A DNA stretch of 64,000 nucleotides, from the NCBI GenBank assembly GCA_026168455.1, contig CM047426.1, forward strand, positions 43,108,307-43,172,306. Reading direction: 5' to 3'. The stretch is from Theocolax elegans (taxonomy: Eukaryota; Arthropoda; Insecta; Hymenoptera; Cerocephalidae). The notes beneath the pieces are model-generated. The model ran no database searches and had not been told where the DNA came from. It saw only the letters and a program-made list of their open reading frames with translations. The position numbers and the translations under genes were made by a program. How positions within the stretch are numbered: position 1 is the stretch's first letter; each line of letters starts with the position of its first letter. Positions 1 to 54,382 of the stretch are shown piece by piece.

Positions 1-273
1 ATAGAAAAAGAAACATATTCCCCGGACTATAGACCACCAACACCTCGCTACTCTCCTCCACGCGATATCAAACAGACGAAAAATAAAAAGGAAAAGCGAA
101 CAAAAAAACATAGAAAACACAAAAGAGATAAAAAGGAAACACGAGAATACAAACTAAAGAAAAGGAATCCTGAACAACATCATAAGAAAAATGAGCCAAA
201 ACCCTTCAAAATTCCGAAAACCAAGACCTTTAATCCAGGACCACCAGGACAAACGCAAGCAGTATTATTTTAA
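1..273 (+). CDS. C-terminal fragment of a lysine-rich protein, possibly retroelement-encoded
   Basis: Frame 1 is open from the window edge to a TAA at 271-273, giving 90 residues. The start is outside the window. The N-terminal third is proline and tyrosine rich (YSPDYRPPTPRYSPP). The rest is very basic, with KNKKEKRTKKHRKHKRDKK and a tail ending in GPPGQTQAVLF. No catalytic motif is visible. A hairpin and a purine tract follow directly, which is the layout of an LTR-retroelement ORF running into its polypurine tract, but it could equally be the last exon of a host gene. I do not recognise the family. Confidence 0.4.
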   Translation: MEKETYSPDYRPPTPRYSPPRDIKQTKNKKEKRTKKHRKHKRDKKETREYKLKKRNPEQHHKKNEPKPFKIPKTKTFNPGPPGQTQAVLF

Positions 274-280
274 TGCATTT

Positions 281-345
281 TTTTTCTTTGGAAGAGTTAC
301 CGTACGGCAACTTTCCAAATTAGGAGGGTCATGTAAGGAATAGAA
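281..345 (+). other. Hairpin plus purine tract, possible LTR boundary
   Basis: GGAAGAGTTACCG and CGGCAACTTTCC form a hairpin at about 290-317, with a wobble pair and one bulge. It is followed by TTAGGAGGG and then TGTAAGGAATAG at about 334. A purine tract followed by TG is typical of a polypurine tract abutting a 3' LTR. No matching second LTR is in the window, so the reading is tentative. Confidence 0.3.
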
Positions 346-1620
346 AAATTTTATTATTATTTTATAACTATAATACAATTGTAACTATAGATATACATCG
401 TATCTATAAATTCTAAATGAAACTGTTACAAAAAAAAGTCAATCTGTTGTATCTTTACAAAAGAAAATTATAATCAAAGAGTCTCTCAGTTTAGTCAGAC
501 GCGTATCATCGAAATGTAAATATTCAGCTAAGAAGTCATAACTTAGTTTTCACAGTTTAAAAGAAACATATACACTCTTTTTAATTTGAAAGTTGCTTAC
601 AATCTTTTAAAATATTTAAGTTAATTTTTAATTATGCATTATTACATTTATATTTCATATTTTCGTATTCAACCATTAAGTTACAGAAAGTATTTTGTAG
701 TACCATTATACTGTAAAGAGTGATTGAATAAATAAAAATTAAATATGTAATCATTGATTCAATTAAATATTATTAAAAAAAAAAACAATATATAATAATT
801 GAACGTATATACGTGTATATATGTATGCGTATATGAATGTACGTATACATTTGTATATGTTTAATTCAATTACTCTTCAGTATTGCCGACTTTATAATAA
901 TTAATAAAATTGTGTTATGTCTTAAATAAACAGATAAAATAGGTTTATATTATAAATAATAAATTTGATAATTTATACAAGGAATAAAGGTAATATGTTA
1001 TATTCAATGGTCAACTAATTCTACAATTCATTTAATTTTTTTTGGGAATTAAATAAATTTTCCTTGTATAAAATACATAATAGTTCAAATGATAAATACA
1101 ATTTAAATTATACAATAAGATATATTAGCAAACACTAATTTATTATATATTAATTTCAATTCTTATATTAACTTGACAAAATATAAAATTGTAAAAGGAT
1201 AAAATAATTCAAGAATTTCCCAAGCAAGAATATATATATAGCAAAATAAGATTTCCTTTTTATAATCAATAAACGACGATATTTAACAATGTTGATAGCA
1301 GTAGATTTATATAAACTTGTTATTTATTTTAATAAGGATTCAGATAACAACTTTCAATATATTTATAAATATTAGAATATTAAAGTAATAGTTATAACAC
1401 ATAATTTTTCAATTTATTGTTTTACATTTTATAAACGAAAAAAAGGGATATCCTTATTAAATGAAACAAATTCGAAATTGAATCAATGTATAAATATGTC
1501 AAAATAACAGAAATGGAGTAATAATTATAGTTAAAAGGAAGATGCATTATAATTTGAATATACGTCGAATAATCAAAAGGGGAAGTAAGGAGAAATAAGA
1601 TCTACTCCCACTAATTAATC
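346..1620. other. AT-rich stretch without recognised genes
   Basis: I see no coding exon or recognisable element. It could be the body of a long LTR beginning near 334, because a good TATA box follows at 1640, but no LTR end could be fixed. Confidence 0.4.
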
Positions 1621-1639
1621 GATGCTCCTCGACCGATTG

Positions 1640-1680
1640 TATATAAGAGGGCAGAAAATTCGGTATCGAAGATTTGTCAT
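1640..1680 (+). promoter_or_regulatory. TATA-box promoter candidate
   Basis: TATATAAG at 1640-1647 is followed by GAGGGCAG and, about 30-40 bp downstream, by TATCGAAG and GTCAT, where a start site would be expected. It is the best Pol II TATA box in this part of the window and points at the hairpin array. A GTAAGT at 1843-1848 could act as a first splice donor. It may belong to an LTR. Confidence 0.5.
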
Positions 1681-2640
1681 ATGCTCATAAGCATTGATAG
1701 TTCGACGGTTGCGTCCCATAGGAGCAACATCTTTTTCATCACTTATTTCATACGCGTTATAGTGTTACTCGTGTTTCGGTAATTCGATTTTTCTTTTTAT
1801 TATTTCATATATTGTGAATCGTGCCTGTTTGCTTTAAGATTTGTAAGTAAAAAAAGAAATATTTGAATAATATACATATATGTTATGAACAAAAATAAAA
1901 TATTTTATTTTATATGCTACCTTATCCGATACACAAAATAACGCTGTTAAACTGCGTTATTTTACTATATCTTTAAAATTTTTTTTATCTTATGCTGTTG
2001 AACTGCATTTGATTTTCTATTTTTATTTGTATCTAATAGTTATATGTATACCTATATGCATATTAACTATTTGTTAAAATTTACTAAAAAGGATTCGCTG
2101 TAGAACTGCGGATCTAGCTAACTCTCTCTCTTTTCTTACTTGATAACGCTGTAGTGCTTCATTTCGAGTATTTAAACGTTCGTGCGAGTATATACGTATA
2201 TATGCACATATGCATGTATGACTGTATAGTCGAACATACGTTCTCTAATTGCATGCTAATCAAATCTGATATATCTATATATACATATATATTTATTATA
2301 TCTGGTTGTCGTGGCCCGTAGGCTCCATCTTTTATTACATATCCTTACCTATCTTTAATTTTTCGCTGTAGCACTGCGAAAAATTAGAATAAGAAATCCA
2401 AATAGAAACGCTGCAGAGCTGCGGTTCTTTCCTTCCATTCAAAGCTAATAATCCGCTATCAAATATTGCATAAATTTGGAGCTGTTAAACTGCTTGATAT
2501 TTATGTAAAATTTGAATCGACGCAAAAAGGATAAATTAAATCACAAATCGCTGTTGAACTGTGATTGTGGCATAATTTATCCAAAATCCAAATACATTAT
2601 CCAAAGCTTAGCTTTTGAGCTGCTAAGCATTAATCCAATT
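1681..2640 (+). ncRNA. Candidate structured RNA: nine hairpins with one conserved 9-nt loop
   Basis: Nine hairpins share a loop of about TGTWRNRCT closed by GC...GC. Loops (stem extents) are: TGTTAAACT 1945-1953 (1935-1944 with 1954-1963, 10 perfect bp); TGTTGAACT 1996-2004 (ATGC/GCAT, then ATC/GAT); TGTAGAACT 2099-2107 (2092-2098 with 2108-2114, one T-G wobble); TGTAGTGCT 2150-2158 (weak, outer ACTTGA/TCGAGT); TGTAGCACT 2367-2375 (2354-2366 with 2376-2388); TGCAGAGCT 2412-2420 (7 bp, one mismatch); TGTTAAACT 2483-2491 (2459-2482 with 2492-2515, about 20 pairs); TGTTGAACT 2552-2560 (2529-2551 with 2561-2582); TTTTGAGCT 2613-2621 (GCTTAGC/GCTAAGC). Stem sequences are unrelated between copies yet paired, with wobbles, which argues for selection on RNA structure. 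Two further hairpins (1707-1735 and 2304-2330) share the pattern GGTTG...CCCRTAGG...CATCTTTT. A TATA box lies upstream. I know no family with this loop. A cluster of small-RNA precursors is an alternative for the two long stems. Confidence 0.6.
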
Positions 2641-2888
2641 ACACGAGATAATATTAGTAAAATTGCAAACAGAGCTTTCTCCAATAAAATAATTATATTT
2701 CAATAATCAAAATAAATCCGAGGAAATTATATGCCCATTTTAAATAAAAAAAATATATAAAATATAGAGAAGATTAAAACATTAAAATTTTCAATAAATG
2801 GGGTCCGTTTCAACGGTTTAACGTAGACAAGAACCCACCATTTTAACGATATTAGCCGCTCGATATTGTTAAAACTATTTTTCTATCG

Positions 2889-2890
<2 letters not shown>

Positions 2891-2952
<62 letters not shown>
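2891..2952. repeat. (TA)n microsatellite
   Basis: This is an uninterrupted AT dinucleotide run directly abutting the GGGTGGTTCTCTGTGA terminus of a fold-back element. Similar runs flank nearly every copy of families A and B. Confidence 0.95.
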
Positions 2953-2954
<2 letters not shown>

Positions 2955-3989
2955 GTGGTTCTCTGTGACATCGAAGATGAAAAAAATAAATATTGCTATA
3001 ACTTTGGGAATACGTTTTAGAGGTATCCAGTAGTTCTCCTGAATTTTTTCAGATTTTTTCTGCGCCATTATTTTAAGTTACAGAGAGTCAAAGTTGACAT
3101 TTTAGCACTTTTTTGCATTATATGCCCATTTTCATGAATTTTTAGCTCCCAGGGGATGCATTTTTCACTAAAAACATAAGTATGACTTTTTTTGTAAAAT
3201 TTTCCGAACTTTTCATTAAATATACTTTAAAAGACATAAATGTATGCTGTCACACTCTTGTAAGCCATTTAAACCTTAAATAGTGAAAATCAGCAATTCT
3301 GCTCCGGACTCTGGTAACCTAATACTGTCTAAAAGATGTCTTTTTATAGTCAGAAACTGTCTAAAAATTTCCAGAGTGGGTCTAAATCAGTAAGATCACT
3401 TATGGTCAAAATGTCCGAGAAAAGTGCCCGAAATAGTAATAGAAATGTATATTTGACGCCTTACAACGATGAATGTATTAGTATGCTCATTGCAAAAAAA
3501 TTTATGCACTCACCTTGGAGTGGTAGAAAAATATCTCAACTTGTTTCAATATCCATCTAATCTCCTGTAAGCTGCTAAAAACACAAATATTATTATACAA
3601 TTATAAAAAATTAATTTTAAACATTTGTAATGCAGGATTTTGAGTTTTACAACCCTTACAAGAATTATAATACCAATTTGAAGGATTACTATAAATATAT
3701 TAACATTATTATTACAATAAATGAATATACGTATTTAATACAAAAATATATCAACAAATCAGATCTGATATTATTCTAAAGTAAAATATTTAGTTCGTTG
3801 AGACCGATATTATATATTATATACATATACATATTTACGAGCGATAAATTCATTTTGTTTCAAATAATTTGCGACTCGGTTGCGTACGTCGCACTCTGGC
3901 TGATGGTCTTTCCCACCGGTAAATGGAGATGACTATACTCGTTGGAGAGAATGTCGTCTTCCTCTCTCTCTATATACATATATATATAT

Positions 3990-5233
3990 GGGCTATTTCA
4001 CGTCAAGTGGTACGATGAAAATTTTAAATCGCTCCAAAATTTGAATTCAGGCTGGAAATATCTTTCAGAAGATAGAAAAAAATTTTTAGGTGTTAAAAAT
4101 AATTTGCCTAAGAGTTATTCCACCATGAAAAATGGAAATTTTTCAATTTTTTAGAAAAATTTCTATTTTCAAAGCCATTTATCTCAAAATCTATTGACGT
4201 TTTTGAAAAAACATTAAAAACAACTTTTGTTCAAAATAATCTTTAGAACTTATCTACCTGGGTTACAATTCTTAATTTTAAAATCTCGAAGAAATATAAC
4301 GCCCGGAAATATTGAATATCAAAAAAAGGCGACCACGCCACAATCGATTTTGATCTAACACCGCTCAAAAGATCACATTTTTCGCGAGCTTTCGAATGGC
4401 GGTGGTTAGATTATTGGCCAAGACCGTTGGTGTAAGTTATACCCCATAAACCTCATAAAATCACTCATTTTTATGTATTTTAGGGCATTTATCTCAAAAT
4501 CTATTGATTTTTTTGAAAAAACATTAAAAACAACATTTGGTCAAAATAATCCTTAGAACTTAACTACCTGGGTTACAATTCTTAATTTTAAAATCTCGAA
4601 GAAATATAACGCCCGGAAATATTGAATATCAAAAAAAGGCGACCACGCCACAATCGATTTTTCGCACAACCACATTTTTCGCGAGCTTTCGAATGGCGGT
4701 GGTTAGATTATTGGCCAAGACCGTTGGTGTAAGTTATACCCCATAAACCTCATAAAATCACTAATTTTCATGTATTTTAGGGCATAACTTACAACAGCGG
4801 TCTTGGCCAATAAGCTAACCACCGCCATTCGAAAGCTCTCGAAAAATGTGATCTTTTAAACAGTGTCAAATTGAAATCGATTGTGGCGTGGTCGCCTTTT
4901 TTTGATATTCAATATTTCCAAGTGCCCTATCTCTTCGAGATGTTAAAATTAAGAATTGTAACCCAGGTAGATAAGTTCTAAAGATTATTTTGAACAAAAG
5001 TTGTTTTTAATGTTTTTTCAAAAAAATCAATAGATTTTGAGATAAATGGCTTTAAAAATATAAATTTTTCTAAAAAATTGAAAAATTTCTATTTTGATGG
5101 TGGAATAACTCTAAGGCAAATTATTTTTAACACCTAAAAATTTTTTTCTATCTTCTGAAAGATATTTCCAGCCTGTTTTCAAATTTTGGAGCGATTTAAA
5201 ATTTTCATCGTACCACTTGACGTGAAATAGCCC
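3990..5233. mobile_element. Fold-back element family B, complete copy
   Basis: The termini GGGCTATTTCACGTCAAGTG at 3990 and its reverse complement ending at 5233 are both preceded or followed by (TA)n. The inverted arms reach several hundred bp. Inside, a block of about 300 bp (4190-4460) is repeated in tandem (4490-4760) and then again inverted (4780-5080). There is no transposase. The TA flanks suggest mobilisation by a Tc1/mariner-like enzyme (inference). Confidence 0.8.
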
Positions 5234-5286
5234 ATATATATATATATATATATATATAGCCGCAGAACATCTGTTCATCTTGCGAC

Positions 5287-7072: not shown

Positions 7073-7518
7073 GTAAGTGACTTTCCGTTGGGTAAAAGTG
7101 ACGTAAGTCGTGTAGTCTCATTATAAAATGTTAAATAAAAGCTTACGCAAAATCTTTTGAGTAAGTTTTTCGTGTAAAAATGTGACTGAATACTACTTAC
7201 TTGTTGAAAATTAAAGTTCGCACCGATTAATGTAAGTTCTTTATAATAATTTTGACTCAACTTTGAACTGTGATATATAGAAATCTACGTAAGTACTTGT
7301 ACAATTAATTTAATGTATAACATATAAAAGTACTTTTTGCAGATTGATATTTAAATTTTTTTCATTCTTCCGTTCAAATAATTTCATTTATTTTATTTAT
7401 GTAAGTTTTAATGTATAAAAGTATGTCCGAGTTCATTTACGTTTTAACTGAAAAAACACGCAAGTGCTTTTTACTTAAGTTTTTGATAAAATATTTTACT
7501 AAATAAAATCACGTAAGT
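7073..7518 (+). repeat. Cluster of seven GTAAGT words, possibly a decayed ~57-bp tandem repeat
   Basis: GTAAGT occurs at 7073, 7103, 7161, 7232, 7289, 7401 and 7513, with a near copy (CGCAAGT) at 7459. Several spacings are close to 57 bp or its double (58, 57, 112, 112). Four copies read CGTAAGT. The intervening sequence is too diverged to prove a repeat unit. Confidence 0.4.
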
Positions 7519-7559
7519 ACATTCTTTACATTTTTTAAAGGATTTTTTTTCAATTCAAA

Positions 7560-8549
7560 TTTTTAATGCACTATTAGATAGAAAATACCTGTTTTAATAT
7601 AAGTCCTAATTTTTATTATTTAAAACATTATTTTCATAAATGATTTTAAATAAATCAGTTTATCTTAATTTTCTCAGTTTCATTGGTTTTGTATTTATGT
7701 AATTTTTTCTTTTTCACGGCACAATAGTTTGTGGGAATTATACTAAATTTTATTGAAATTTCAATGAAGATGTATTCTACTTGTCACAGAAAATCCAATT
7801 TGTTATTTATTCATGTTTTAATTAATTTTAGTAAATTTTTTTTAAATCAGCGCTTCTTAAAAAATTGGTTTATATTGCTGTAACTTTTGGAGCATTAATA
7901 AAAAAACTCTGTAAATTTGACAGATTGCTGAATTTGATATGTTCTTTAAGAGATTTTTACTATTTTGATGTGCTGTATACAGAAAAAGTATGACAGTCTT
8001 CCAAAGTCATATTGCTATTAATTTTTCGACGAGTTTCGCATGAATTCTTTTACTTAAATTTTATTTTCTACTTCATTTTTGGAAGCACATACTTGCGCTA
8101 TACGTCAATCTATTTCTTTTTACATCTACTAAATGTAGAATTTTAAAATTTAGTGAAATTCCAGTGACACAATTTCATACCATTTAAACTTTTTATTGGA
8201 AGGGAGCACATCAAAATATGGAAAACTTGTTTTATGTACTATTAAAATAGAATACTTGTTTAAAGTTTCAACCATTTCCAAACAATGCTCCAAATTTTAC
8301 AGTATCCATAATAAATTATTTTTTCCAAGTGACACGATATTTCATCATTTTTCTTACATTTTTCAATTATTGAACCATCAATTTGAGGCAAAGGAGTTTG
8401 ACAAAGTATCTATTGAGCTTAAACCGTATAGATGGTGTATAGAACTATAAATTGAAACTGGTACAAAGAGGTTAGACACATTTTAAAGCTGCTAAATCGA
8501 TGAGTGACACAAACAAAAAGTTAGGGAGATTTGCCCATATAAGTACATG
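7560..8549. other. AT-rich stretch without recognised genes
   Basis: This is low-complexity AT sequence. An 84-codon frame at 8196-8450 has no recognisable motif and looks random. Confidence 0.5.
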
Positions 8550-8563
8550 AAATATACCAAAAT

Positions 8564-8776
8564 TTTTTTTTTTTATTATTTTAACGTCGCTCTTTTTATG
8601 CTCCCAAACCGGTGGTAATCAGCGACCGAGGTCATACGATGTCTTGGTGAAGAAAGCACTTGTTGAAAATACATTCGCCAGTGGTGCTTGTATTAATCGG
8701 CCGGGGCCAGGAATCGAACCTGGGACCTCCAGATTACGAGCCCGACGCCCTACCGACCAAGCCATCGCAGGCCTCT
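8564..8776 (-). mobile_element. tRNA-derived SINE, copy 1, with 14-bp target duplication
   Basis: Read on minus, it has a tRNA head with A box (TGGCTTGGTCGGTAGGGC) and B box (GGTTCGATTCC) and the anticodon loop CTCGTAA. A body with ATTCGCCAGTGG follows, then an A-rich tail (poly-T on plus at 8564). The element is flanked by AAATATACCAAAAT at 8550-8563 and 8777-8790, a clear target-site duplication. The second copy is at 56016-56229. Confidence 0.9.
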
Positions 8777-8992
8777 AAATATACCAAAATGAAAACAATA
8801 AAATCTACATTATATTAAAGTTATCTTTTCGAGCGATTTTGTAAAAACTCCCCAATTCTTGCGAAAAATACTTAAAACATATGTATTTTATGATAAATAT
8901 GTGTTACATAAGTTAATGATTTATATTACTGACAAAAAATTTATTATTATAATTATTAAGTTATATTAAAAAAAATGATAAATTATAACGTC

Positions 8993-9160
8993 CGTCCGTC
9001 CGTCCGTCCGACAAACATCATCTTGGCGTGAGAGTGAACGAGAAAGAGCGAAAGAGACAGTGAGAGGGAGAGATAGAGAGTCAGATAGGCAGATAGTGAA
9101 AATGAGAGAGAAAGAGAGAGAGAATGAGAGAATGAGAGATATAGAGAGAGAGAGAGAGAT
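8993..9160. repeat. (CCGT)n and (GA)n microsatellites
   Basis: There are five CCGT/GTCC units near 8991-9011, then a long degenerate GAGA tract. The tract continues into (ATTG)n at a LINE 3' end. Similar GA tracts recur at 9480-9600, 9950-10200, 14325, 32890 and 35010. Confidence 0.85.
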
Positions 9161-9480
9161 TGATTGATTGATTGATAAGATTTTATTGGGCCTTTGGGGT
9201 AGATACCCCGTAGGCACTTTACGTTTGTACAGCGACGCTTTACACAAGTTAACAAAATAAAATAACAATATTTGAGATATAAAATAAATATAAAATAACA
9301 TGATATATACAAAATAAAACAATATAAAATAAGATGTACAATATAAAAATAATTTGAATAAATAACAAAAAGCAAAAAACGATGATACATATTTAAGGCA
9401 CTCGCACTTAACCTATAATACTTTAGAGGTGAGGGACCCGTGGCACCGTTATCCCTTCGTTCCTTATGAGAGAGGCAATG
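9160..9480 (-). mobile_element. LINE 3' end (UTR) fragment
   Basis: TTGATTGATTGATTG at 9160 is followed by TTTTATTGGGCCTTTGGGG and CCCCGTAGGCACTTTACG. This matches the organisation of the 3' end of the LINE at 35045 (ATTGATTGATTGA, TTTATTGGG, GGGGAAAACCCCGTATACAC). The ATTG repeat is the minus-strand 3' tail. Confidence 0.6.
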
Positions 9481-34984: not shown

Positions 34985-37900
34985 CGTCCGATTGTTCAGA
35001 CGTGGAGAGGGAAATGGTGAGAGAGGGAGATAAAGTGAGTGATAGAGATTGATTGATTGACTGAGTTCTTTATTGGGTAATTTGGGGAAAACCCCGTATA
35101 CACTTTAGCTAAAACAAATCGCAGGTAAAAATTATAAAATATGGATAAAATTAATTAAATACAAATGAAAACGTGTCGAAGAAAAGAAAAAAGTAGTAAA
35201 ATAACAATATAACAAAATAACAATAAATAAATATTTAACTCGCAAATACAAAATAATTTAACATAACAATTCAACATAAGCGCATACAAAATCCAATCGC
35301 AAAACAAAGTCCAAGAGATTAAAACAAAATAAAATAAAATAAAAAGAAATAAAATAAAACAAACGGAGACGTCAGCGCGAAATACAAAAGAAAAAATAAA
35401 TAAATAAAATAAGAGAACGACTAGAATTGCAAATACTTAATATTACTTTATTTCATTTTATTTTATAAATCAGGCAAGGGAGGACACACTATGCCTTCAA
35501 CTGACACCCTCGAATCCCAGGCTTGTCGATCAAGCTCAGTGATATAGGATAGTAAGGAAGCTTTAAAGGGAGTGAAGAGGAGCGGGTCGAAGTCAGCGAA
35601 AGGTAGATGATTAATGAGACGAGAGGCAGTGATTAGGAAGGAGTTGTTTAGGGCTTCGGTTCTAGGAGGGAGATAAAATAGGGACAAGGGAGAGTGGCGA
35701 GAGGATGAGCGGGATAAAAATGAGGAATCACGTGCGATGAAATGGCGTGCAATGTAGGACGGGGAATTGTGAGAAAGGATATTATATGCGATACAGCCAA
35801 TGAAAAGGGATCTCCTGAGCTCAACCGACAGCCATCCCAGCTTGAGACGGTATGGTGTCACGTGCTCGCACCAGGGTATGTTCCCCCACACATAGCGAAC
35901 ACAAGCATTCAAGAGTCGTTGGAGTCGCAGATTCCTGGTCGCATCTAAGTCATGGAAGACTGCGCACGCATAATCAAAGTGTGGGAGAACAAGCGACTCG
36001 ACTAAATGTTTCCGGTTCTAGCGCGAGAGTGCCCGTCGGAAAAATCTCAAGGAGTGGAGGACTCCATGAATGCGCTGTGAGATTGACGCAACCTGACGAG
36101 ACCAATCCAGGGTAGGAGTAATCCAGATGCCCAATGATTTGACTTGCAATTCATAATTCAGTAGGTTATCTCCAATTCTAACCTTCGGAGCAGAATCTAG
36201 CTGAATGCGCGAAGTATAAGCTTGACTCCCCATGATCATCACCTTCGTCTTTTTCACGTTTAGACTTAGCCCATTTGACCTCGCCCATTTATCCACCGCG
36301 TTGGCATCCTCTGAAATTCTCTGAACTCTCTGAGCGAGATCCGCCAGGTAAAAAGAGTGATAGATCTGGGTGTCATCCGCGAAAATCATATAGTTAGAAT
36401 GCTTTAAAACACTCGGCAGGTCATTAATAAAAATTGAGAACAAAAGAGAGCCCAGGACACTGCCCTGTGGAACTCCCCTGGATGTGTCAAGCCAGGCCGA
36501 GGTATTCCCTAGTTCGTCCACCACTGCCTGAGAACGGCCTACAAGGTAGTGAAAGAACCAGGTTAAAACCATATCCGAGCACCCCAAAGAACGTAGTTTA
36601 CGGAGCATAATATCGTGCGGCACCGAATCGAACGCCTTGGAAAAGTCCAACAGGATGAGGATGGTAATCATGCGCTTGTCAATCGCTCTCCTAACATCAT
36701 CCAAAACACCAATTAGTGCCGTCTGGGTACTGTGCCCCCGGCGAAAGCCCACTTGTCTCTCAATAATTAAGTTATTGGAATTAATAAAATCAGTAAGTTG
36801 TTCGTGGACTAGCTTCTCTAAAATTTTGGAGATTTCGCAGAGCTTAGCAATGGGCCTGGTATCAGACGGCGAGATCACCCTGTTCGACTTAGCCAGTGGA
36901 AAAAGTAAGGATTTAGTCCAGGGCTCCGGAAAGAAACCTGTTGAAAGAGAGGAATTAAACAGATCAACCAGATGAGGTGCTATCTGAGGTGCCAAGCATT
37001 TTAGCATGGGAACAGAGATCCCGTCATAGCCTATGGCCTTAGAGGAAGCCCGGGATATGGTGGAAAGCACCTTATGAGGAGTGACAGGAGCGAAACTGAA
37101 GGAAGTTGAGGGATAATTGGAGGGTAAAAAGTCCTGAGATGCGATGAGTAACTGAAGATGAGCCAATGTGAAATAAGAGGGTGAATATGATATGAAAGCC
37201 TAATGGTTATTAAGCTGATCGAGTGAAAACAGACTAAGAGATGACTGAGCTGGTTTAGCCACAAGACCCATGTTCCTGAGCTCCCTCCACAGACCTGAGG
37301 AATTGGCTGCAGACTTGATTTTGTGGTTATAAAAAGTAAATTTACTCAAGTCTAAAGAGTTTTTAACCAGACTACGGAGGTCCTTGTAAATGTGGTAGTC
37401 AGAGCTCAGGCCCGTGGTCAAGTACCTCTTGTAAGCCATGTTCCGAGCCTTAATGTTTTGCTTAATGAGTGGAGTGATCCATGATTTATTAGAGCATTTA
37501 ATGGTGGTGAGCTTTGCTGGTGCTAGGGAGTCGAATGTAGATAAAATAGAAGTGACAAGATTGGAGAGGAGGTCATTGATAATGATGGGTGACGAAGAGA
37601 GTGACAGCGAATTAGACTGAAACAGAGAGTTTGAGGGAGAAGGAGAAGGAAAGATTGTGCGGCCAGGCGAGGTATGCGACAAATGAGTAGATGATCGATA
37701 AGATGACATGATAGTGGTGTTAAGATGAGATGAAGCTCGATCAAAAGTATTCGAAAACAATGCAGCCGCCTCCGACAGATCGATCAACGCAAGGTTGCGC
37801 GACCAGAACCTTTTTGATTTCGGCAAAGGTTTACTAAAGTCTAGTTCGAGAATGATGAAGTTATGCCCTGCTGCAAAGGGCACGAGTGATTTCGTATACT

Positions 37901-38515
37901 TATAAACTGGCAGAGGATTTCGAACAATAAATAAATCGAGCCATGTGTGGGATGAAATATTAGCTGTGTGAGTATGATGAGTAGGGTCGGATTCAATTAG
38001 AGAAAGGTCTAATGGCTCTAAGTAGGACTACAACATGGCGGACGACCCATCCTTTTTGCCCATATTGATATTAAAGTCTCCGGTGATTACCACTTGATCG
38101 CATGTATGTAAGAACTTTGATACAGAGTTAAAAAATTCGAATGGGTACGTCGCTGTGGGCCTTTGGTAAACCACACAAAAGAGTAACGAACTGGAGCAAC
38201 CATAAATCTGAAAAATCATAAACTCTGGAGAGTTGGGAAAAACAGGGTCCGAGTGGGCGACTAACTTAACATCAAGGTTATTCTTAATGTAAGCCGCAAC
38301 ACCCCCCCTCCTTTCCAACTCGATCCAATCTATATAATCTATAGTTTGGAAGGCCTAGTATATCGGAGGAGTCGTAATCCTTAAGAAAAGTTTCGGAAAA
38401 GGAAATGATATCGTGATTTGAAGGTGCAATTAATGATTCAACGGATGAGAAATGAGTTTTTAATCGGTTGATGTTAACATGAAAGATGGAAAATGTAGTG
38501 TTAGTGAGAGATGGT
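34985..38515 (-). mobile_element. Near-full-length CR1/Jockey-group LINE, frameshifted
   Basis: On minus, 5' to 3': the endonuclease start at about 38500 (NINRLKTHFSSVESLIAPS); RGGVAAYIKNN, FCVVYQRPTA and VVITGDFNIN (38318-38028); HTWLDLFIVRNPL and the linker (37980-37200); reverse transcriptase (37166-36018); a C-terminal domain (35912-35463, PPRTEALNNSFLITASRLIN); and a UTR ending at CCCCGTATAC...TTTATTGGG, (ATTG)n and a GA tract near 34985. Frames are broken between blocks, so it is dead. It lies inside the HGD intron, and its 5' end meets the OSGEPL1-like exon. Confidence 0.9.
36018..37166 (-). pseudogene. LINE reverse transcriptase ORF segment
   Basis: This is the longest intact part (382 codons) of the LINE polyprotein. 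It has AIGYDGISVPMLKCLAPQIA (RT motif 0/1), QVGFRRGHSTQTALIGVLDD, LLDFSKAFDSVPHDIMLRKL (catalytic D), SRGVPQGSVLGSLLFSIFIN, YMIFADDTQIYHS (catalytic FADD) and GLSLNVKKTKVMIMG. All RT residues needed for catalysis are present in the segment, but flanking frameshifts separate it from the endonuclease and C-terminus. Clade placement (CR1/Jockey group) rests on these motifs and the RNase H-less C-terminus. Confidence 0.9.
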
Positions 38516-38708
38516 GCCTGGCCAGCCGACCCTCATTTCGACGATGTGTTTCTATTTTACTACATGAAGTTATGCTCTCATGAGACTTTCTGGCAAATAA
38601 ATGTAAGTAAAATAAACCAATTGATAACAATTCATCACATTTGATAGCTTGCAAATAATCTGAATGGACTTCCCAGTTACTTGAGTAATATAATAAATGA
38701 TATATTAG

Positions 38709-38918
38709 TTGGGAATTAATTGCATTACCTAATATTTTACCAGTACTGTCAACAATTGCTATGCCAGTGTCATCGCAACTTGTTTCTATACCAAGTACAA
38801 TGGGTGCTTTATGTTTTGCACTATAATTACTTAGTAGTTTAATGTTTAAGGTTTTATTATTGCACAAGTTTCTTGAAAGTCGCCCAAAAATTCTGATAAC
38901 ATTGCTTGTCCAATGCAT
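38709..38918 (-). pseudogene. OSGEPL1: OSGEPL1-like (mitochondrial TsaD/Qri7) first exon, isolated
   Basis: ATG at 38918 opens a basic, Arg/Asn-rich leader (NVIRIFGRLSRNLCNN) suited to mitochondrial import. It is followed by PIVLGIETSCDDTGIAIVDS and GKILGNAINSQ, the N-terminal nucleotide-binding signature of the Kae1/TsaD/Qri7 family that makes the t6A modification of tRNA. Homology stops near residue 70. The family HxExH-type metal motif and the rest (about 330 residues) are not found, and the LINE 5' end starts about 190 bp downstream. It is probably a stranded duplicate or an exon disrupted by insertion. A functional nested gene with distant exons is less likely. Confidence 0.65.
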
Positions 38919-38924
38919 TACTTA

Positions 38925-42329: not shown

Positions 42330-42800
42330 ACGAAATTTAAACCTCCATTTTTAAATTTTCCAATGGAAATTTTCAAATTCCGACTTTAGAATCGGAAAGA
42401 GCGGAAAATTTTAGTTTAGAAAAGTGCTTCTGGTTATTATTTTTGTTTTTTTTCGACAATTTTCTAGGCAAAAAACCAATCGACTATAAAATGTCCGCTT
42501 AGGAAGAAATGGGTTAAGATAAGCGGGCACCGTTATAAGTATAGGCCCGTTCGAGCGTACAGCAACTCGCCTTCTCCCACTGCGGGAGTTACCCCCATCT
42601 TTCGGTGGTAATACTGTACCAGTTTCAAATAAAAGGCGCATTTAAACTAAGATGTCTTGATCATAATTATTTAGTTCCTTCCACCATTTCCTCTATGCCG
42701 TCCGAGCTCACGGAGAGTGATTATATCGGGCTCTATTTAATTATACGTATAATTCATGGAGAATTTATCAAAATTATTATTTTAATAACATTAAAAAAAA
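42330..42800. other. Region upstream of a LINE RNase H ORF
   Basis: A GC-richer block at 42535-42610 is of unknown origin. No gene is supported. Confidence 0.35.
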
Positions 42801-42804
42801 TTCG

Positions 42805-43890
42805 ATGCTAAATACTTATAGTCTACCATTTTTTGCACATTTTTCTCCTAACATTTGTGACTTTAAATTGGGCTCCTTTTTAAAAGATAAATCCAAGAAT
42901 GCTAATAGTGATTTTAATTCGTATGTGAAAAAATTCTATTCTAATCCTAGATTTGTTTTTACGGACGGATCTATTGATGCTGGTGATGGGTATGGTTCGG
43001 GTATTTATTTCCCATCATTAACCAACGGTGATTTCTCATATAGGATTCTAAATGGCAGCTCCATTTTTAGTTGTGAGGCTTATGCTATTTTTCAAGCCCT
43101 TTTGGTGATTGAATCTCAACCTTTGGGCTCTTTCATAATATTCTCGGATTCTAAAAGCTGTATCTCGTCTTTGAGTAAGATAGGATTAAATTCTTATATG
43201 CAGGATTTTATTATGCTCATTAAAGCGAAAATTTTTGTATTTAACGAGTTGGGTTACTACATTCAAATAGTATGGATCCCAAGCCACAAAGGCATTAGTG
43301 GGAATGAAAAGGTTGACTTAAGTGCAAAGAATGCATGTAAGAATGATCATATTCATTACAGGGAGATATCATACATTGACAAGTATAAATTTATAAAGAA
43401 AATTACTGTAGGGCTTATGGACAAGTACATTGTAAATTATAATAAGGGATTAAAATATTTAAACTTAAATAAGGGTTTTAATATGAAACCGTGGTTTTAT
43501 AGGGTTAAGCTTGATAGAAGAAGAATTTGTGTTATTAATAGGCTGAAGACGAATCATAATAGAACTATGTCTCATTTGTATAACAAAAATATTGTCCAGA
43601 ATGTCATATGTGAATGTAACGAAGATGTTCACAGTGTTGATCATCTGATTTGGGACTGTCCCTTGTACACCCTGAAAAGGAAAAAACTCTTAGAATCTTT
43701 GAAACCCTACAAGATTCAGCTTGGTTCAGACATTGTTTTGCTCTGTAATACTAGCCATTTTACTATAAGTTTAATTTTTGTTAACTTATTTTTACCAGGC
43801 CACACAGACTACCAACAGCATCACCACCCAAACCGAATGACCTCCGCTTCAACTCACTCTTCTCAAGGGCTGGTTGGTAGATACTGGTGA
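42805..43890 (+). CDS. LINE ORF2 C-terminal part with RNase H domain
   Basis: This open frame of 361 codons has a type I RNase H with all four acidic positions: FVFTDGS (D), FSCEAYAIFQ (E), IIFSDSKSC (D) and WIPSHKGISGNEKVDLSAK (final D). A C-terminal Cys/His segment follows (ICECNEDVHSVDHLIWDCP), common at the end of I/R1/LOA-type LINE ORF2 proteins. RT and endonuclease are missing upstream, so it is a 5'-truncated insertion although this part is intact. The last 30 residues (PGHTDYQQHHHPNRM...) run into a GC-rich 3' UTR and may not be original coding sequence. Confidence 0.85.
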   Translation: MLNTYSLPFFAHFSPNICDFKLGSFLKDKSKNANSDFNSYVKKFYSNPRFVFTDGSIDAGDGYGSGIYFPSLTNGDFSYRILNGSSIFSCEAYAIFQALLVIESQPLGSFIIFSDSKSCISSLSKIGLNSYMQDFIMLIKAKIFVFNELGYYIQIVWIPSHKGISGNEKVDLSAKNACKNDHIHYREISYIDKYKFIKKITVGLMDKYIVNYNKGLKYLNLNKGFNMKPWFYRVKLDRRRICVINRLKTNHNRTMSHLYNKNIVQNVICECNEDVHSVDHLIWDCPLYTLKRKKLLESLKPYKIQLGSDIVLLCNTSHFTISLIFVNLFLPGHTDYQQHHHPNRMTSASTHSSQGLVGRYW

Positions 43891-49799: not shown

Positions 49800-51233
49800 A
49801 TGTCCAAATTAAAAATTCAATACCATTCAGTATGTCCAAAATGTAAAACATATATTAGTATATTTAATAAAAGTCATCACCGAATCTTTTGTACCGTTTG
49901 TAAAGAATATGTGAATTTGAAAGATCCTTGTTACCGCGACTTTTACGTAACATTAGATGTAAAAAATCAGCTTAGATACCTCATAGAAGATAATGCAGAA
50001 TTTTACACCAATGTAATGCATCGCAGAGAAGCAGCAGACGGATCACTATTTAAGAACATATACGATGGAATAAAATATCAAGAATTTATAGAGTCGTTAC
50101 CTGCTGAGCATAAGGAATCGTATGGAACACTTATGTTTAATAGCGATGGTTCACCCATATTTAAAAGCTCAAAATTTTCTGTATGGCCGATTCAACTTGT
50201 CTTAAATGAGGTACCAGTTCACGTACGTAATGAAAGCCCCATAACATACGCTTTATGGTTTGGTCATAATAAACCTAACATGACTTATTTTTTACGTTCT
50301 TTTGTTGCGGATATGAATACTTTATCAGACCTCGAAATACCCTGCCAGCTAAACAATGAAATAAAGGGTGTTCATTTATATTGCGTGTGCTCTTGTGTTG
50401 ACTCTGTAGCTCGAGCACCGATGCAAGGCATTAATCAGTATAATGGATATTACGGGTGTAACTGGTGCCTTCATCCGGGAGAAGCCGTTCATCATGAAAG
50501 AGGGTCTATAATAAAATATGTATTGCTTGATTATGTTCCTGCTAGGAGAACTTATGAAGAAACTTTACAACATATGCAACAAGCAGTTGATGCACGTGCA
50601 CCAATTTATGGTGTAAAGAAAGCAGCAGCACTAATAAATCTACAAAAATTTTATATTGTTGACGGCTTTGTTCCGGATCCCATGCATTGCATAGACTTAG
50701 GAATAGCTAAACAGTTTACAGACTACTGGTTCAAATCTTCCGGCAAGCCCTACAGCATTTCAAATATATATATGGATAACATAAATGAAAATATTACGCA
50801 ATTTAAGGTACCACAACAGCTTGCCAGTCTATCACGCTCAATATATGATCGTAATTGGTGGAAAGCAAAAGAGTGGGTAAATTATGTTTTATTTTACAGT
50901 ATTGTAACATTAGCTGAAGTACCAAATTTTGACAAATTTTTACGACATTGGGCTCTTTTAGTGGAAGGCTATTATCTACTTTTAAAAGAATCAATTACAC
51001 AATTAGAATTGCAACGCGCTGACAATCTTTTAAAAAAATTTGTAGCTATGACTGAGGTTCATTATTAACCAGATGCGATGACTTTTAATGTCCATCAGCT
51101 AACTCATTTAGCACAAAGTGTTGCAGATTGGGGACCATTATGGGTACATTACGGTTACCCATTTGAATCTGGAAATGGTAAAATCGTGTCAAAAGTCCAT
51201 GCAGCAAAAGGCGTATTAAGTCCATGCCAATCC
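49800..51233 (+). pseudogene. CMC/EnSpm-type transposase, internal stop and lost C-terminus
   Basis: ATG at 49800 opens 422 codons. It starts with a zinc-like N-terminus (CPKCKTYISIF, FCTVCKEYV), followed by FNSDGSPIFKSSKFSVWPIQ (first catalytic D region), CSCVDSVARAPMQGI, YYGCNWCLHPGE and IVDGFVPDPMHCIDLGIAKQ, the conserved transposase blocks. A TAA at 51066-51068 interrupts it. The same frame then continues with DAMTFNVHQLTHLAQSV and DWGPLWVHYGYPFESGNGK, as the family does, until the minisatellite cuts it off near 51225. The stop is therefore a nonsense mutation and the C-terminus is missing. Confidence 0.85.
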
Positions 51234-53600
51234 ACCTAGAAATCCATGCAAATCGAACTGGAAATCCATGCCAATCCACCTGGATATCCATGAAAATCCA
51301 CCTGGAAATCCATGTGAATCCACCTGGAAATCCATGCCAATCCACCTGGATATCCAAGCCCATTCACCTGGAAATCCATGCCAATCGATCTGGAAATCCA
51401 TGCCAATCCACCTGGAAATCCATGCAAATCGAACTGGAAATCGAGACGAATCCACCTGGAAATCCATGCAAATCGAACTGGAAATCGAGGCGAATCCACC
51501 TGGAAATCCATGCCAATCGATCTGGAAATCCATGCCAATCCACCTGGAAATCCATGCAAATCGAACTGGAAATCCATGCAAATCGAACTGGAAAAAGAGG
51601 CGAATCCACCTGGATATCCATGCAAATCGAACTGCAAATCCATGCAAATCGAACTGGAAATCGAGGCGAATCCACCTGGAAATCCATGCCAATCCACCTG
51701 GAAATCCATGTTAATCCACCTGGAAATCCATGTTAATCCACCTGGAAATCGATGCAAATCCACCTGGAAATCCATGTCAATCCACCTGGATATCCATGCC
51801 AATCCACCTGGAAATCCATGTGAATCCACCTGGAAATCCATGCCAATCCACCTGGATATCCATGCCCATCCACCTGGAAATCCATGCCAATCGATCTGGA
51901 AATCCATGCTAATCCACCTGGAAATCCATGCAAATCGAACTGGAAATCGAGGCGAATCCACCTGGAAATCCATGCCAATCGATCTGGAAATCCATGCCAA
52001 TCCACCTAGAAATCCATGCAAATCGAACTGGAAATCCATGCCAATCCACCTGGATATCCATGCCAATCCACCTGGATATCCAAGCCCATTCACCTGGAAA
52101 TCCATGCCAATCGATCTGGAAATCCATGCCAATCCACCTGGAAATCCATGCAAATCGAACTGGTAATCGAGACGAATCCACCTGGAAATCCATGCAAATC
52201 GAACTGGAAATCGAGGCGAATCCACCTGGAAATCCATGCCAATCGATCTGGAAATCCATGCCAATCCACCTGGAAATCCATGCAAATCGAACTGGAAATC
52301 CATGCAAATCGAACTGGAAATCGAGGCGAATCCACCTGGAAATCCATGCAAATCGAACTGGAAATTGAGGCGAATCCACCTGGAAATCCATGCCAATCGA
52401 TCTGGAAATCCATGCCAATCCACCTGGAAATCCATGCAAATCGAACTGGAAATCCATGCAAATCGAACTGGAAATCGAGGCGAATCCACCTGGAAATCCA
52501 TGCAAATCGAACTGGAAATCGAGGCGAATCCACCTGGAAATCCATGCCAATCGATCTGGAAATCCATGCCAATCCACCTGGAAATCCATGCAAATCGAAC
52601 TGGAAATCCATGCAAATCGAACTGGAAAAAGAGGCGAATCCACCTGGATATCCATGCAAATCGAACTGCAAATCCATGCAAATCGAACTGGAAATCGAGG
52701 CGAATCCACCTGGAAATCCATGCCAATCCACCTGGAAATCCATGTTAATCCACCTGGAAATCCATGTTAATCCACCTGGAAATCGATGCAAATCCACCTG
52801 GAAATCCATGTCAATCCACCTGGATATCCATGCCAATCCACCTGGAAATCCATGTGAATCCACCTGGAAATCCATGCCAATCCACCTGGATATCCATGCC
52901 CATCCACCTGGAAATCCATGCCAATCGATCTGGAAATCCATGCTAATCCACCTGGAAATCCATGCAAATCGAACTGGAAATCGAGGCGAATCCACCTGGA
53001 AATCCATGCCAATCGATCTGGAAATCCATGCCAATCCACCTAGAAATCCATGCAAATCGAACTGGAAATCCATGCCAATCCACCTGGATATCCATGCCAA
53101 TCCACCTGGAAATCCATGTGAATCCACCTGGAAATCCATGCCAATCCACCTGGATATCCAAGCCCATTCACCTGGAAATCCATGCCAATCGATCTGGAAA
53201 TCCATGCCAATCCACCTGGAAATCCATGCAAATCGAACTGGTAATCGAGACGAATCCACCTGGAAATCCATGCAAATCGAACTGGAAATCGAGGCGAATC
53301 CACCTGGAAATCCATGCCAATCGATCTGGAAATCCATGCCAATCCACCTGGAAATCCATGCAAATCGAACTGGAAATCCATGCAAATCGAACTGGAAATC
53401 GAGGCGAATCCACCTGGAAATCCATGCAAATCGAACTGGAAATTGAGGCGAATCCACCTGGAAATCCATGCCAATCGATCTGGAAATCCATGCCAATCCA
53501 CCTGGAAATCCATGCAAATCGAACTGGAAATCCATGCAAATCGAACTGGAAATCGAGGCGAATCCACCTGGATATCCATACCAATCCACCTCGAAATCTA
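51225..53600. repeat. 22-bp minisatellite with a 1034-bp higher-order duplication
   Basis: More than 100 units of AATCCACCTGGAAATCCATG plus two bases are present, with variant classes (CGAACTGGAAATC, CGATCTGGAAATC, GGATATCC, GAGGCG). A block around 51730-52005 recurs at 52764-53039, shifted by exactly 1034 bp (47 units). Being a multiple of 22 but not of 3 per unit, it is open in many frames on both strands. I regard none of those frames as genes. Confidence 0.95.
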
Positions 53601-53729
53601 GCTTGAAAATCCACCTGGATTTCACCTGGAAATCGAGGCTCAAAATCTAGTCTAATCCAGGTGGAATCCAGCTGAATCCAGGTCGAAATCCAGCTGGAAA
53701 TCCATCTGGATTTTTTCGACAGGGAACAC

Positions 53730-54382
53730 AATAATAAAATATAAATTCATTGTTTCTCAAATACATACAGTGTATACTTTTATTAACTTAATTGTATAAT
53801 TTCTCCCTTAGTACAATTTTCCAAAAAAATGAAACATTAAGCTAACTGAGATAATATTATACATTTATGAAGAAGAAATTAAAACTTTTGTTTCATCGTT
53901 ATTTAAAAAAACTCTTCTCTTGTAAAACTTCAACAAAAAACAAACCCTTATAAAATCTCCAAATTGTCATTTGTCAGAAATTGTTTTAAGTATTTTGGAT
54001 TTTTTGCTTAACCATCAAAAAATTAACAATTATTATATGTACTCTAATTTTTGCAGTAGACTGATGGTGATATTTGATATTAACAATGTAGACAATGGAC
54101 CATTCCATTGATCTTTATAAATTTCTTTTTTTATAGGTTTCTATTAAACCAAATAGAATACATTTATTTTCAGATGAACAGTGGTTTGGAAGCTTTTATT
54201 ATGAAATAGAAATAATAAATAATACTCTCATTTTTTACAAACTAAGTTTTAATTGAAAAAATGATGAAATACATACATTTTGCATTAAAAAAATTACAAG
54301 AAATTATTCCATACTTTATTTGAAAAAAAAATAGTTATAGTAAAAATTATAAATTTGTTGTCTAATAATTATCGTTATTTGT
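53730..54382. other. AT-rich stretch
   Basis: I see no gene or element. Confidence 0.45.

What the first reader, a model, noticed from the sequence alone, without database searches (positions are those of the whole stretch)
1935..2632. Nine hairpins sharing a 9-nt loop: a possible new structured RNA
In the sequence, GC-TGTWRNRCT-GC occurs nine times in 700 bp. In eight copies both sides are clearly complementary, with stems up to 20 or more pairs whose sequences are unrelated between copies. A conserved loop with freely changing but paired stems is what repeated protein-binding stem-loops look like; roX and Xist repeat arrays are functional analogies only. A TATA box lies about 300 bp upstream. 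I know no RNA family with this loop.
Basis: partly seen in the sequence, partly recalled or inferred. Interest (0 to 1): 0.87.

Follow-up and report, generated by a model that had tools for sequence, protein, structure and literature searches.

The report
Hairpin array in insect retrovirus-like LTRs
The nine look-alike RNA hairpins are real, but they belong to the long terminal repeat of a virus-like jumping element in an insect genome; related elements keep the same kind of array with different stems, so it looks like a working part of the element's RNA.

Summary
In detail: nine motif copies (at most one mismatch) at 1943-2623, all on +, eight with paired flanks. It is not a host lncRNA: window 332-2890 is the 3' LTR of an envelope-bearing Ty3/gypsy-type element. 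The LTR is multicopy (43 matches, 86-100%), solo copies have 4-bp target-site duplications, and the TATA box is the LTR promoter. Diverged families in the same genome keep the array with unrelated but complementary stems: in 34 hairpins picked by loop alone, 191 of 272 flank pairs are Watson-Crick against 97 expected. Following an accessory ORF to further families, I predicted arrays in their LTRs. Two loci of one related group had them with the same loop; another had hairpins whose loops had all changed. A splice-donor-like site lies 89-104 nt before the first hairpin in five loci of four families. Best reading: an array of protein-binding sites in the element's unspliced RNA, probably for packaging, read by an element-encoded protein. 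A Rev/Rex-like role of the small basic accessory protein is possible, but a sister clade without it has other hairpins in that place. Transcription, strand and binding are untested.

The parts
1..273 (+). 3' end of the element's small basic accessory ORF (90 codons to the TAA at 271-273; this copy has a TAG further upstream)
   Evidence: Translation and alignment to the intact F2 ORF; the tblastn match C2:43107893-43108468 has one TAG
318..331 (+). Polypurine-tract-like stretch AATTAGGAGGGTCA directly before the LTR
   Evidence: Shared by window, L027, L029, L043 (L045 with one change further up) before TGTAAGG; same place in F2
332..2890 (+). 3' LTR (F1 family), lacking its last part after the (AT)n run
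   Evidence: 43 genome matches; common start at 332; 3' end and TSDs seen in other copies
1640..1647 (+). TATA box of the LTR promoter
   Evidence: a TATA box with similar surroundings stands at the same place in F2, F4, F5 and F6
1708..1728 (+). Possible second kind of hairpin (loop core CCATAGG, 5-bp stem)
   Evidence: 5-bp stems are common by chance, so tentative
1843..1848 (+). 5' splice-site-like GTAAGT, 100 nt before hairpin 1
   Evidence: GT(A)A(G/A)T in F2, F5, F6 and GGTAAAAT in F4 at 89-104 nt; use not tested
1935..1963 (+). Hairpin 1, 10 bp
1987..2013 (+). Hairpin 2, 4 bp plus 3 after an internal mismatch
2091..2115 (+). Hairpin 3, 8 pairs with two G-U
2148..2160 (+). Hairpin 4, stem decayed in this copy (GCTGTAGTGCTTC; relatives read ..CTGC)
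2354..2388 (+). Hairpin 5, 13 pairs
2404..2428 (+). Hairpin 6, 7 of 8 pairs
2459..2515 (+). Hairpin 7, long stem with mismatches
2529..2582 (+). Hairpin 8, long stem with an internal loop
2606..2628 (+). Hairpin 9, 7 pairs

Best explanation
The array is a cis-acting RNA element in the LTR of a lineage of envelope-bearing Ty3/gypsy-type retroelements in an insect genome. SHOWN by sequence: it lies in a multicopy LTR, downstream of the TATA box and of a splice-donor-like site; diverged families keep 9 or more hairpins (F6 about 16) whose stems differ but stay complementary; loop sequence is family-specific and, in F4, changed in all hairpins. INFERRED: each hairpin shows its loop to one RNA-binding protein, several are bound side by side, and the unspliced genomic RNA is marked by it. 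The likeliest use is packaging with Gag as binder; the next is export or protection from splicing. The joint loop change suggests a partner that evolves with the element rather than a constant host protein.
For: LTR anatomy, element coding region. F2 as independent test set: 35 of 45 flank pairs against 18.6, 2 of 20000. Loop-only scans: F5 49 of 56 (7 of 20000), F6 56 of 72 (2 of 20000); motif on the element's + strand only, 35 hits in five stretches against 0 on -. Pooled 34 hairpins: 191 of 272 Watson-Crick against 96.6, 0 of 5000. Prediction from the accessory ORF met in F5/F6, and in F4 in altered form. Loop distance within families 1.98, between 3.23, 0 of 2000 permutations. Donor-like site 89-104 nt upstream in F1, F2, F4, F5, F6. 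Paired-motif pattern in the genome: 64 hits, 0 in the reversed control.
Against: No transcript, probing or binding data. Among 25 F1 copies there is no compensatory change, 41 one-side changes and 43 broken cells, and loops vary only slightly less than linkers (1.9% against 2.7%); the loop rate was reached by 6 of 92 shifted annotations, so within-family data say little. Between F1 and F2, 24 of 90 positions are paired in one family only and 8 in neither. Wobble pairs do not decide the strand: G-U 19, A-C 20 in the loop-only set. The poly(A) site is unknown, so the array may also lie at the 3' end of every RNA. Old fragment L052 has no donor-like site at that distance.
Confidence: 0.45

Rival explanations
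1. Rev/RRE- or Rex/RxRE-like pair: the small basic protein encoded between env and the 3' LTR binds the hairpins and carries unspliced RNA out of the nucleus.
For: Intact 221-aa basic ORF directly before the PPT in F2, purifying selection against F1 (N part dN 0.17 with saturated dS; C part dN/dS 0.22), 57 genome matches. It led to the arrays of F4-F6, and none of 38 sister-clade env matches has an accessory match beside it (compared by eye).
Against: Sister-clade L077, without the accessory ORF, has two other hairpins with a shared apex after a GTAAGT, so arrays at this place do not need the protein. All parts of an element are inherited together, so co-occurrence is weak evidence. No homolog or fold known.
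Confidence: 0.2
2. The hairpins bind a host RNA-binding protein (export, translation or silencing).
For: C at loop position 8 in 58 of 59, R at position 5 in 59 of 59, across families.
Against: Loops differ by family, and F4 changed in all hairpins; a constant host partner would not ask for that.
Confidence: 0.15
3. The element works as DNA or on the other strand: hairpins in minus-strand cDNA, cruciforms, or an antisense RNA.
For: A-C mismatches are as common as G-U (20 and 19), and the recurrent C-A at the third pair (16 of 57) would be a G-U pair on the other strand.
Against: Order of TATA box, donor-like site and array on +. No function of this kind is known to me for such arrays.
Confidence: 0.12
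4. A host lncRNA (new structured RNA, or an ANTSR/roX-like gene) as first proposed.
For: TATA box and strong fold.
Against: The whole stretch is an LTR with many copies, TSDs and an adjoining provirus-like coding region. Co-option of this one copy was not tested, but its hairpin 4 is decayed.
Confidence: 0.03

Closest known systems
Retroviral packaging signals (psi) in the 5' leader (MLV and HIV-1 recalled; RSV from a figure legend in PMC5035971, passages seen)
   Same: Stem-loops in the leader near the splice donor, read by the element's own protein in the model.
   Different: Known ones have a few different stem-loops; here 9 to about 16 hairpins show one loop on unrelated stems. No packaging shown. 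In RSV the donor lies after psi, so place is not a fixed rule.
Rev/RRE, Rex/RxRE and constitutive transport elements (recalled; Rev/RRE passage in PMC5035971)
   Same: Structured RNA in retroviral transcripts, a basic accessory protein in the same element.
   Different: No single large structure; many short hairpins. Binding untested; a sister clade lacks the protein.
gypsy insulator array of su(Hw) sites in the gypsy 5' UTR (recalled)
   Same: An array of repeated protein sites in the leader of a gypsy-type element.
   Different: There duplex DNA sites without paired flanks; here the paired stems are what is kept.
Envelope-bearing gypsy elements and chuvirus-glycoprotein elements (PMC13172572, PMC10084718: passages; PMC7642597: listing only)
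   Same: Gypsy-type pol with a type III / Jingchuvirales-like glycoprotein; PMC13172572 notes gypsy elements with type III fusion glycoproteins.
   Different: The words hairpin and stem-loop are absent from PMC13172572, and hairpin from PMC10084718. PMC10084718 found no clear gypsy capture of the glycoprotein; here pol, glycoprotein ORF, accessory ORF and LTR stand in order in one family.

Membership tests
LTR retrotransposon | TG..CA ends with short target-site duplication | tested here: met
   11 loci with both ends located; 4 set aside (L027, L029 3' LTRs, L009 5' LTR, L040 without intact end); of 7 left, read by eye, 5 have an exact 4-base TSD and 2 match 3 of 4
LTR retrotransposon | LTR pair, PBS and PPT | tested here: met
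   F2 arrays in pairs 12.15-12.18 kb apart at three places; PBS-like TGGTGACAGCGG after 4 F1 LTRs; PPT-like tract before others. The tRNA was not identified; the window element's own 5' LTR was not found within 5 kb
Ty3/gypsy (Metaviridae) | RT-RNaseH-integrase order | tested here: met
   F2 L061: PF00078, PF17917, PF17921 in that order in one open frame; rve in F1 L051. No tree built
Envelope-bearing element | Fusion glycoprotein gene after pol | tested here: met
   PF24664, E 5e-229 in F2; broken in the window's copy
Retroviral packaging signal | Needed and sufficient for packaging of unspliced RNA | not testable with these tools
   Only place and conservation seen
Rev/RRE-like system | Element-encoded protein binds the RNA and exports it | not testable with these tools
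   Basic ORF present and conserved; binding unknown
Known Rfam family | Covariance-model match at gathering score | tested here: not met
   Only a tRNA elsewhere in the window; weak matches below gathering
ANTSR sex-determining lncRNA | Lies between CRELD2 and THUMPD3, with miR-315 near | tested here: inconclusive
   Definition from passages; no miRNA match in the window. The two genes were not searched for; the flanks are retroelement

The most novel reading that the evidence does not exclude
A modular RNA-protein tag system, new for LTR elements: 9 to about 16 interchangeable hairpins that show one loop sequence, placed right after the splice donor, read by an element-encoded protein (Gag or the accessory protein) with which the loops co-evolve, so that related families re-code the whole array together and tell their own genomic RNA from that of rival elements in the same cell.
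Probability: 0.25. Interest if true: 0.85.

Novelty: new variant of a known kind. Interest (0 to 1): 0.62.

Why it matters
I know of little on structured cis-acting RNA in insect LTR elements. Families with different loop codes in one genome are a natural experiment on how an RNA array and its protein partner co-evolve, and on how related elements keep their RNAs apart. Array and accessory ORF together make it testable whether Rev- or Rex-like regulation arose outside vertebrate retroviruses.

Tried and rejected
Host lncRNA (ANTSR, roX-type): set aside because the region is an LTR. The stem / U-U mismatch / 2 bp / triloop model from the fold: set aside because the inner pairs are not kept in F2. 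Strand from wobble pairs: a first count (beyond the third pair 35 G-U against 15 A-C) favoured +, but its F4-F6 hairpins had been chosen with G-T counted as a pair and A-C not; the loop-only set gives 19 against 20. Compensatory changes among F1 copies: none. Class B CCRTAGG hairpins: 13 of 18 have a stem of 5 or more against 27% of random positions, but the copies are not independent and the pattern was broadened; left open. Viral contigs: 8 hold the paired pattern, with little or no pairing of flanks and mostly as tandem repeats. Accessory protein: none of 177 scored candidates, no Pfam, no PDB match. Pattern for the L077 apex: 0 matches, but it fixed the loop length wrongly; the mended pattern did not complete. 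The env dN/dS used a wrong frame and is discarded. In one search a table of other mismatches came out all zero through a fault in my script and is not used.

Full report
OBSERVATION. The region folds far better than its shuffles (z = -8.4, 20 shuffles). No Rfam family matches at its gathering score.

WHAT IT LIES IN. The window's own assembly (658 Mb, 1277 contigs; the named relatives of its transposon proteins are mostly Hymenoptera) has 650 exact motif hits against 278 for the reversed control. A DNA search with window 1600-2700 gave 43 matches, the window itself included, at 86-100% (40 of 91 candidates scored, so a lower bound). Copies that reach that far begin sharply at window 332 with TGTAAGG and end with AAACGTCACA some 100 nt past an (AT)n run. 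Both LTR ends were located in 11 loci; 4 were set aside (L027 and L029 are 3' LTRs, L009 a 5' LTR, L040 has no intact end). Of the 7 left, read by eye, 5 have an exact 4-base TSD (L022, L024, L025, L030, L041) and 2 match 3 of 4 (L011, L012). Window, L027, L029, L043 and L045 share the same internal sequence up to a PPT-like tract, so they are 3' LTRs. L009, L031, L032 and L037 are followed by a PBS-like TGGTGACAGCGG. In the window the last part of the LTR is missing after the (AT)n run, where another repeat begins. No 5' LTR was found in the 5 kb left of the window.

THE ELEMENT. Those 5 kb (L051) have a gypsy-type integrase, a glycoprotein gene of PF24664 type (here in two overlapping frames, so broken) and a basic ORF that runs towards window 1-273. 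A young family (F2) has arrays in pairs 12.15-12.18 kb apart at three places, RT, RNase H and integrase in one open frame (L061), an intact glycoprotein ORF and an intact 221-aa accessory ORF directly before PPT and LTR (L059). Glycoprotein relatives number 382 (best 120 listed, 43-50% identical); those listed with a name are ants, a sawfly and a parasitoid wasp. The accessory ORF has no match at E <= 0.001 among 177 candidates of the large protein set but 57 tblastn matches in its own genome (64 of 64 candidates scored). F1 against F2 shows purifying selection: N part dN 0.17 with dS saturated, C part dN 0.23, dS 1.03.

DIVERGED FAMILIES KEEP THE ARRAY. F2 (L016) is 73% identical to F1 over part of the array. 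A loop-only search found nine motifs in its array stretch, in the same order, and their flanks pair 35 of 45 against 18.6 (2 of 20000). Between F1 and F2, of 90 positions, 58 are paired in both (41 unchanged, 7 changed on one side, 10 on both), 24 in one only, 8 in neither; F2 hairpins 8 and 9 need a bulge. F2 subfamilies L054-L058 keep some of the hairpins, broken or partly outside the fetched stretch. F3 (L003, L060) keeps some of the second half, decayed. An old fragment, L052, has three.

PREDICTION TEST. F4-F7 were found only through the accessory protein, and four of their loci were fetched downstream. L072 (F6) has 12 hairpins of the expected kind, and its continuation L075 three or four more. 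L071 (F5) did not reach the array; its continuation L074 has 10. F5 and F6 have similar LTRs by eye, so count them as one group. F4 (L070, L076) gave nothing by the original loop pattern but nine distinct hairpins of a changed kind, GC-TGYYGTTCA-GC and the like, with loop ends T-A, A-T or C-G, when any 9-nt loop between GC and GC was allowed; four of them occur twice, in a duplication. L073 (F7) showed no LTR. The lists used a pairing condition. The loop-only scan did not: F5 7 hits, 49 of 56 flank pairs (7 of 20000); F6 10 hits, 9 with full flanks, 56 of 72 (2 of 20000); F1 7 hits, 46 of 56 (15 of 20000); F2 8 hits, 49 of 64 (0 of 20000); the short L075 stretch, with 2 usable, is uninformative (10 of 16, expected 10.5). 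Pooled over 34 loop-only hairpins of F1, F2, F5 and F6: 191 of 272 Watson-Crick against 96.6 (sd 8.4).

LOOP. Over 59 hairpins (F1 9, F2 9, F3 3, F4 9, F5 10, F6 16, L052 3; the weaker F3 copies and L054-L058 left out) position 1 is U in 54, position 5 G in 52 and A in 7, position 8 C in 58, position 9 U in 54. In F1 and F2 this is partly set by the search pattern; in F4-F6 no loop pattern was imposed. Distances within families are 1.98 against 3.23 between (0 of 2000 permutations). A C-A mismatch at the third pair recurs, 16 of 57; on the other strand it would be a G-U pair. Its meaning is open.

PLACE IN THE RNA. F1, F2, F5 and F6 have in order a TATA box, one to three CCRTAGG motifs, a GT(A)A(G/A)T donor-like site, then the array 90-104 nt on; F4 has GGTAAAAT at 89 nt, a form I added to the pattern. 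L052 has GTAAAT at 122 and 201. The poly(A) site is unknown; AATAAA is frequent in this AT-rich sequence and I draw nothing from it.

SISTER CLADE. The glycoprotein search of the genome gave 71 matches (70 of 1504 candidates scored): 33 at 59-100% and 38 at 39-46% to F2 (my count). None of the 38 has an accessory match beside it (by eye). Two of the 38 were read downstream, in part. L077 has no accessory ORF and no class A hairpins. It has a GTAAGT and, about 80 nt on, two hairpins that share another apex (YCTCG..AGT-CGGGR) on unrelated outer stems. L078 (1.2 kb) has a GTAAGT and then a tandem repeat with a 179-nt period, with GGGTA-bearing segments that may fold (by eye). These two are suggestive only. 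They weaken the accessory protein as a required partner and favour one that all these elements have.

MECHANISM. Shown: LTR setting, stem complementarity kept across families, family-wise loops, place after a donor-like site. Inferred: transcription, folding, protein binding, and a role in marking unspliced RNA for packaging (most likely) or export. The + strand is supported by the order of promoter, donor-like site and array, and by the LTR's own direction, not by wobble pairs.

NOVELTY. I found no description of such an array in what I saw: listings; passages (for PMC12440569 and PMC12992720 also abstract and outline) of PMC12799146, PMC12594375, PMC12440569, PMC10084718, PMC13172572, PMC12992720 and PMC5035971. 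No paper was read whole. The survey these papers cite (Chary and Hayashi 2025) was not in the listing and was not read. Leader stem-loops in retroviruses are a known kind of thing (recalled); a long array of one loop on unrelated stems, re-coded by family, is to my knowledge a new variant.

Noticed in passing
window 2891-2952: (AT)n run in the LTR. In the window and L023 it is followed by a repeat starting GGGTGGTTCTCTGT, in L012, L028, L033, L034 and L040 by another starting GGGGTATTCCACGTG, as if several mobile elements target AT runs.
   Followed up: no
window 3975-4281 and 4943-5252: Two arms of a large inverted repeat, seen as paired matches to several loci at about 70-73%; looks like a mobile element next to the LTR.
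   Followed up: no
window 51182-53746: Long tandem satellite that gives open frames of up to 518 codons in several frames on both strands; likely not coding.
   Followed up: no
window 36018-37199 (-) and 42721-43890 (+): Non-LTR reverse transcriptase (RVT_1) with best named relatives in Trichogramma, and an RNase H ORF.
   Followed up: partly
window 38460-38921 (-): Open frame that looks like the start of OSGEPL1 (name recalled from the sequence; no Pfam match).
   Followed up: no
window 8698-8773 (-): tRNA-Thr-like gene, low-scoring; may be a tRNA-derived repeat.
   Followed up: no
L077 1820-1925: Two hairpins with a shared apex CTCG-loop-CGGG on unrelated outer stems in a sister-clade LTR; a possible second loop code.
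   Followed up: partly
L078 673-1200: 179-nt tandem repeat directly after a GTAAGT in another sister-clade LTR.
   Followed up: no
G000 C205:5983-6780 and 7481-9262: F2-like array pieces about 0.7 kb before a 43% identical glycoprotein frame: nested insertion or an exception to the clade split.
   Followed up: no
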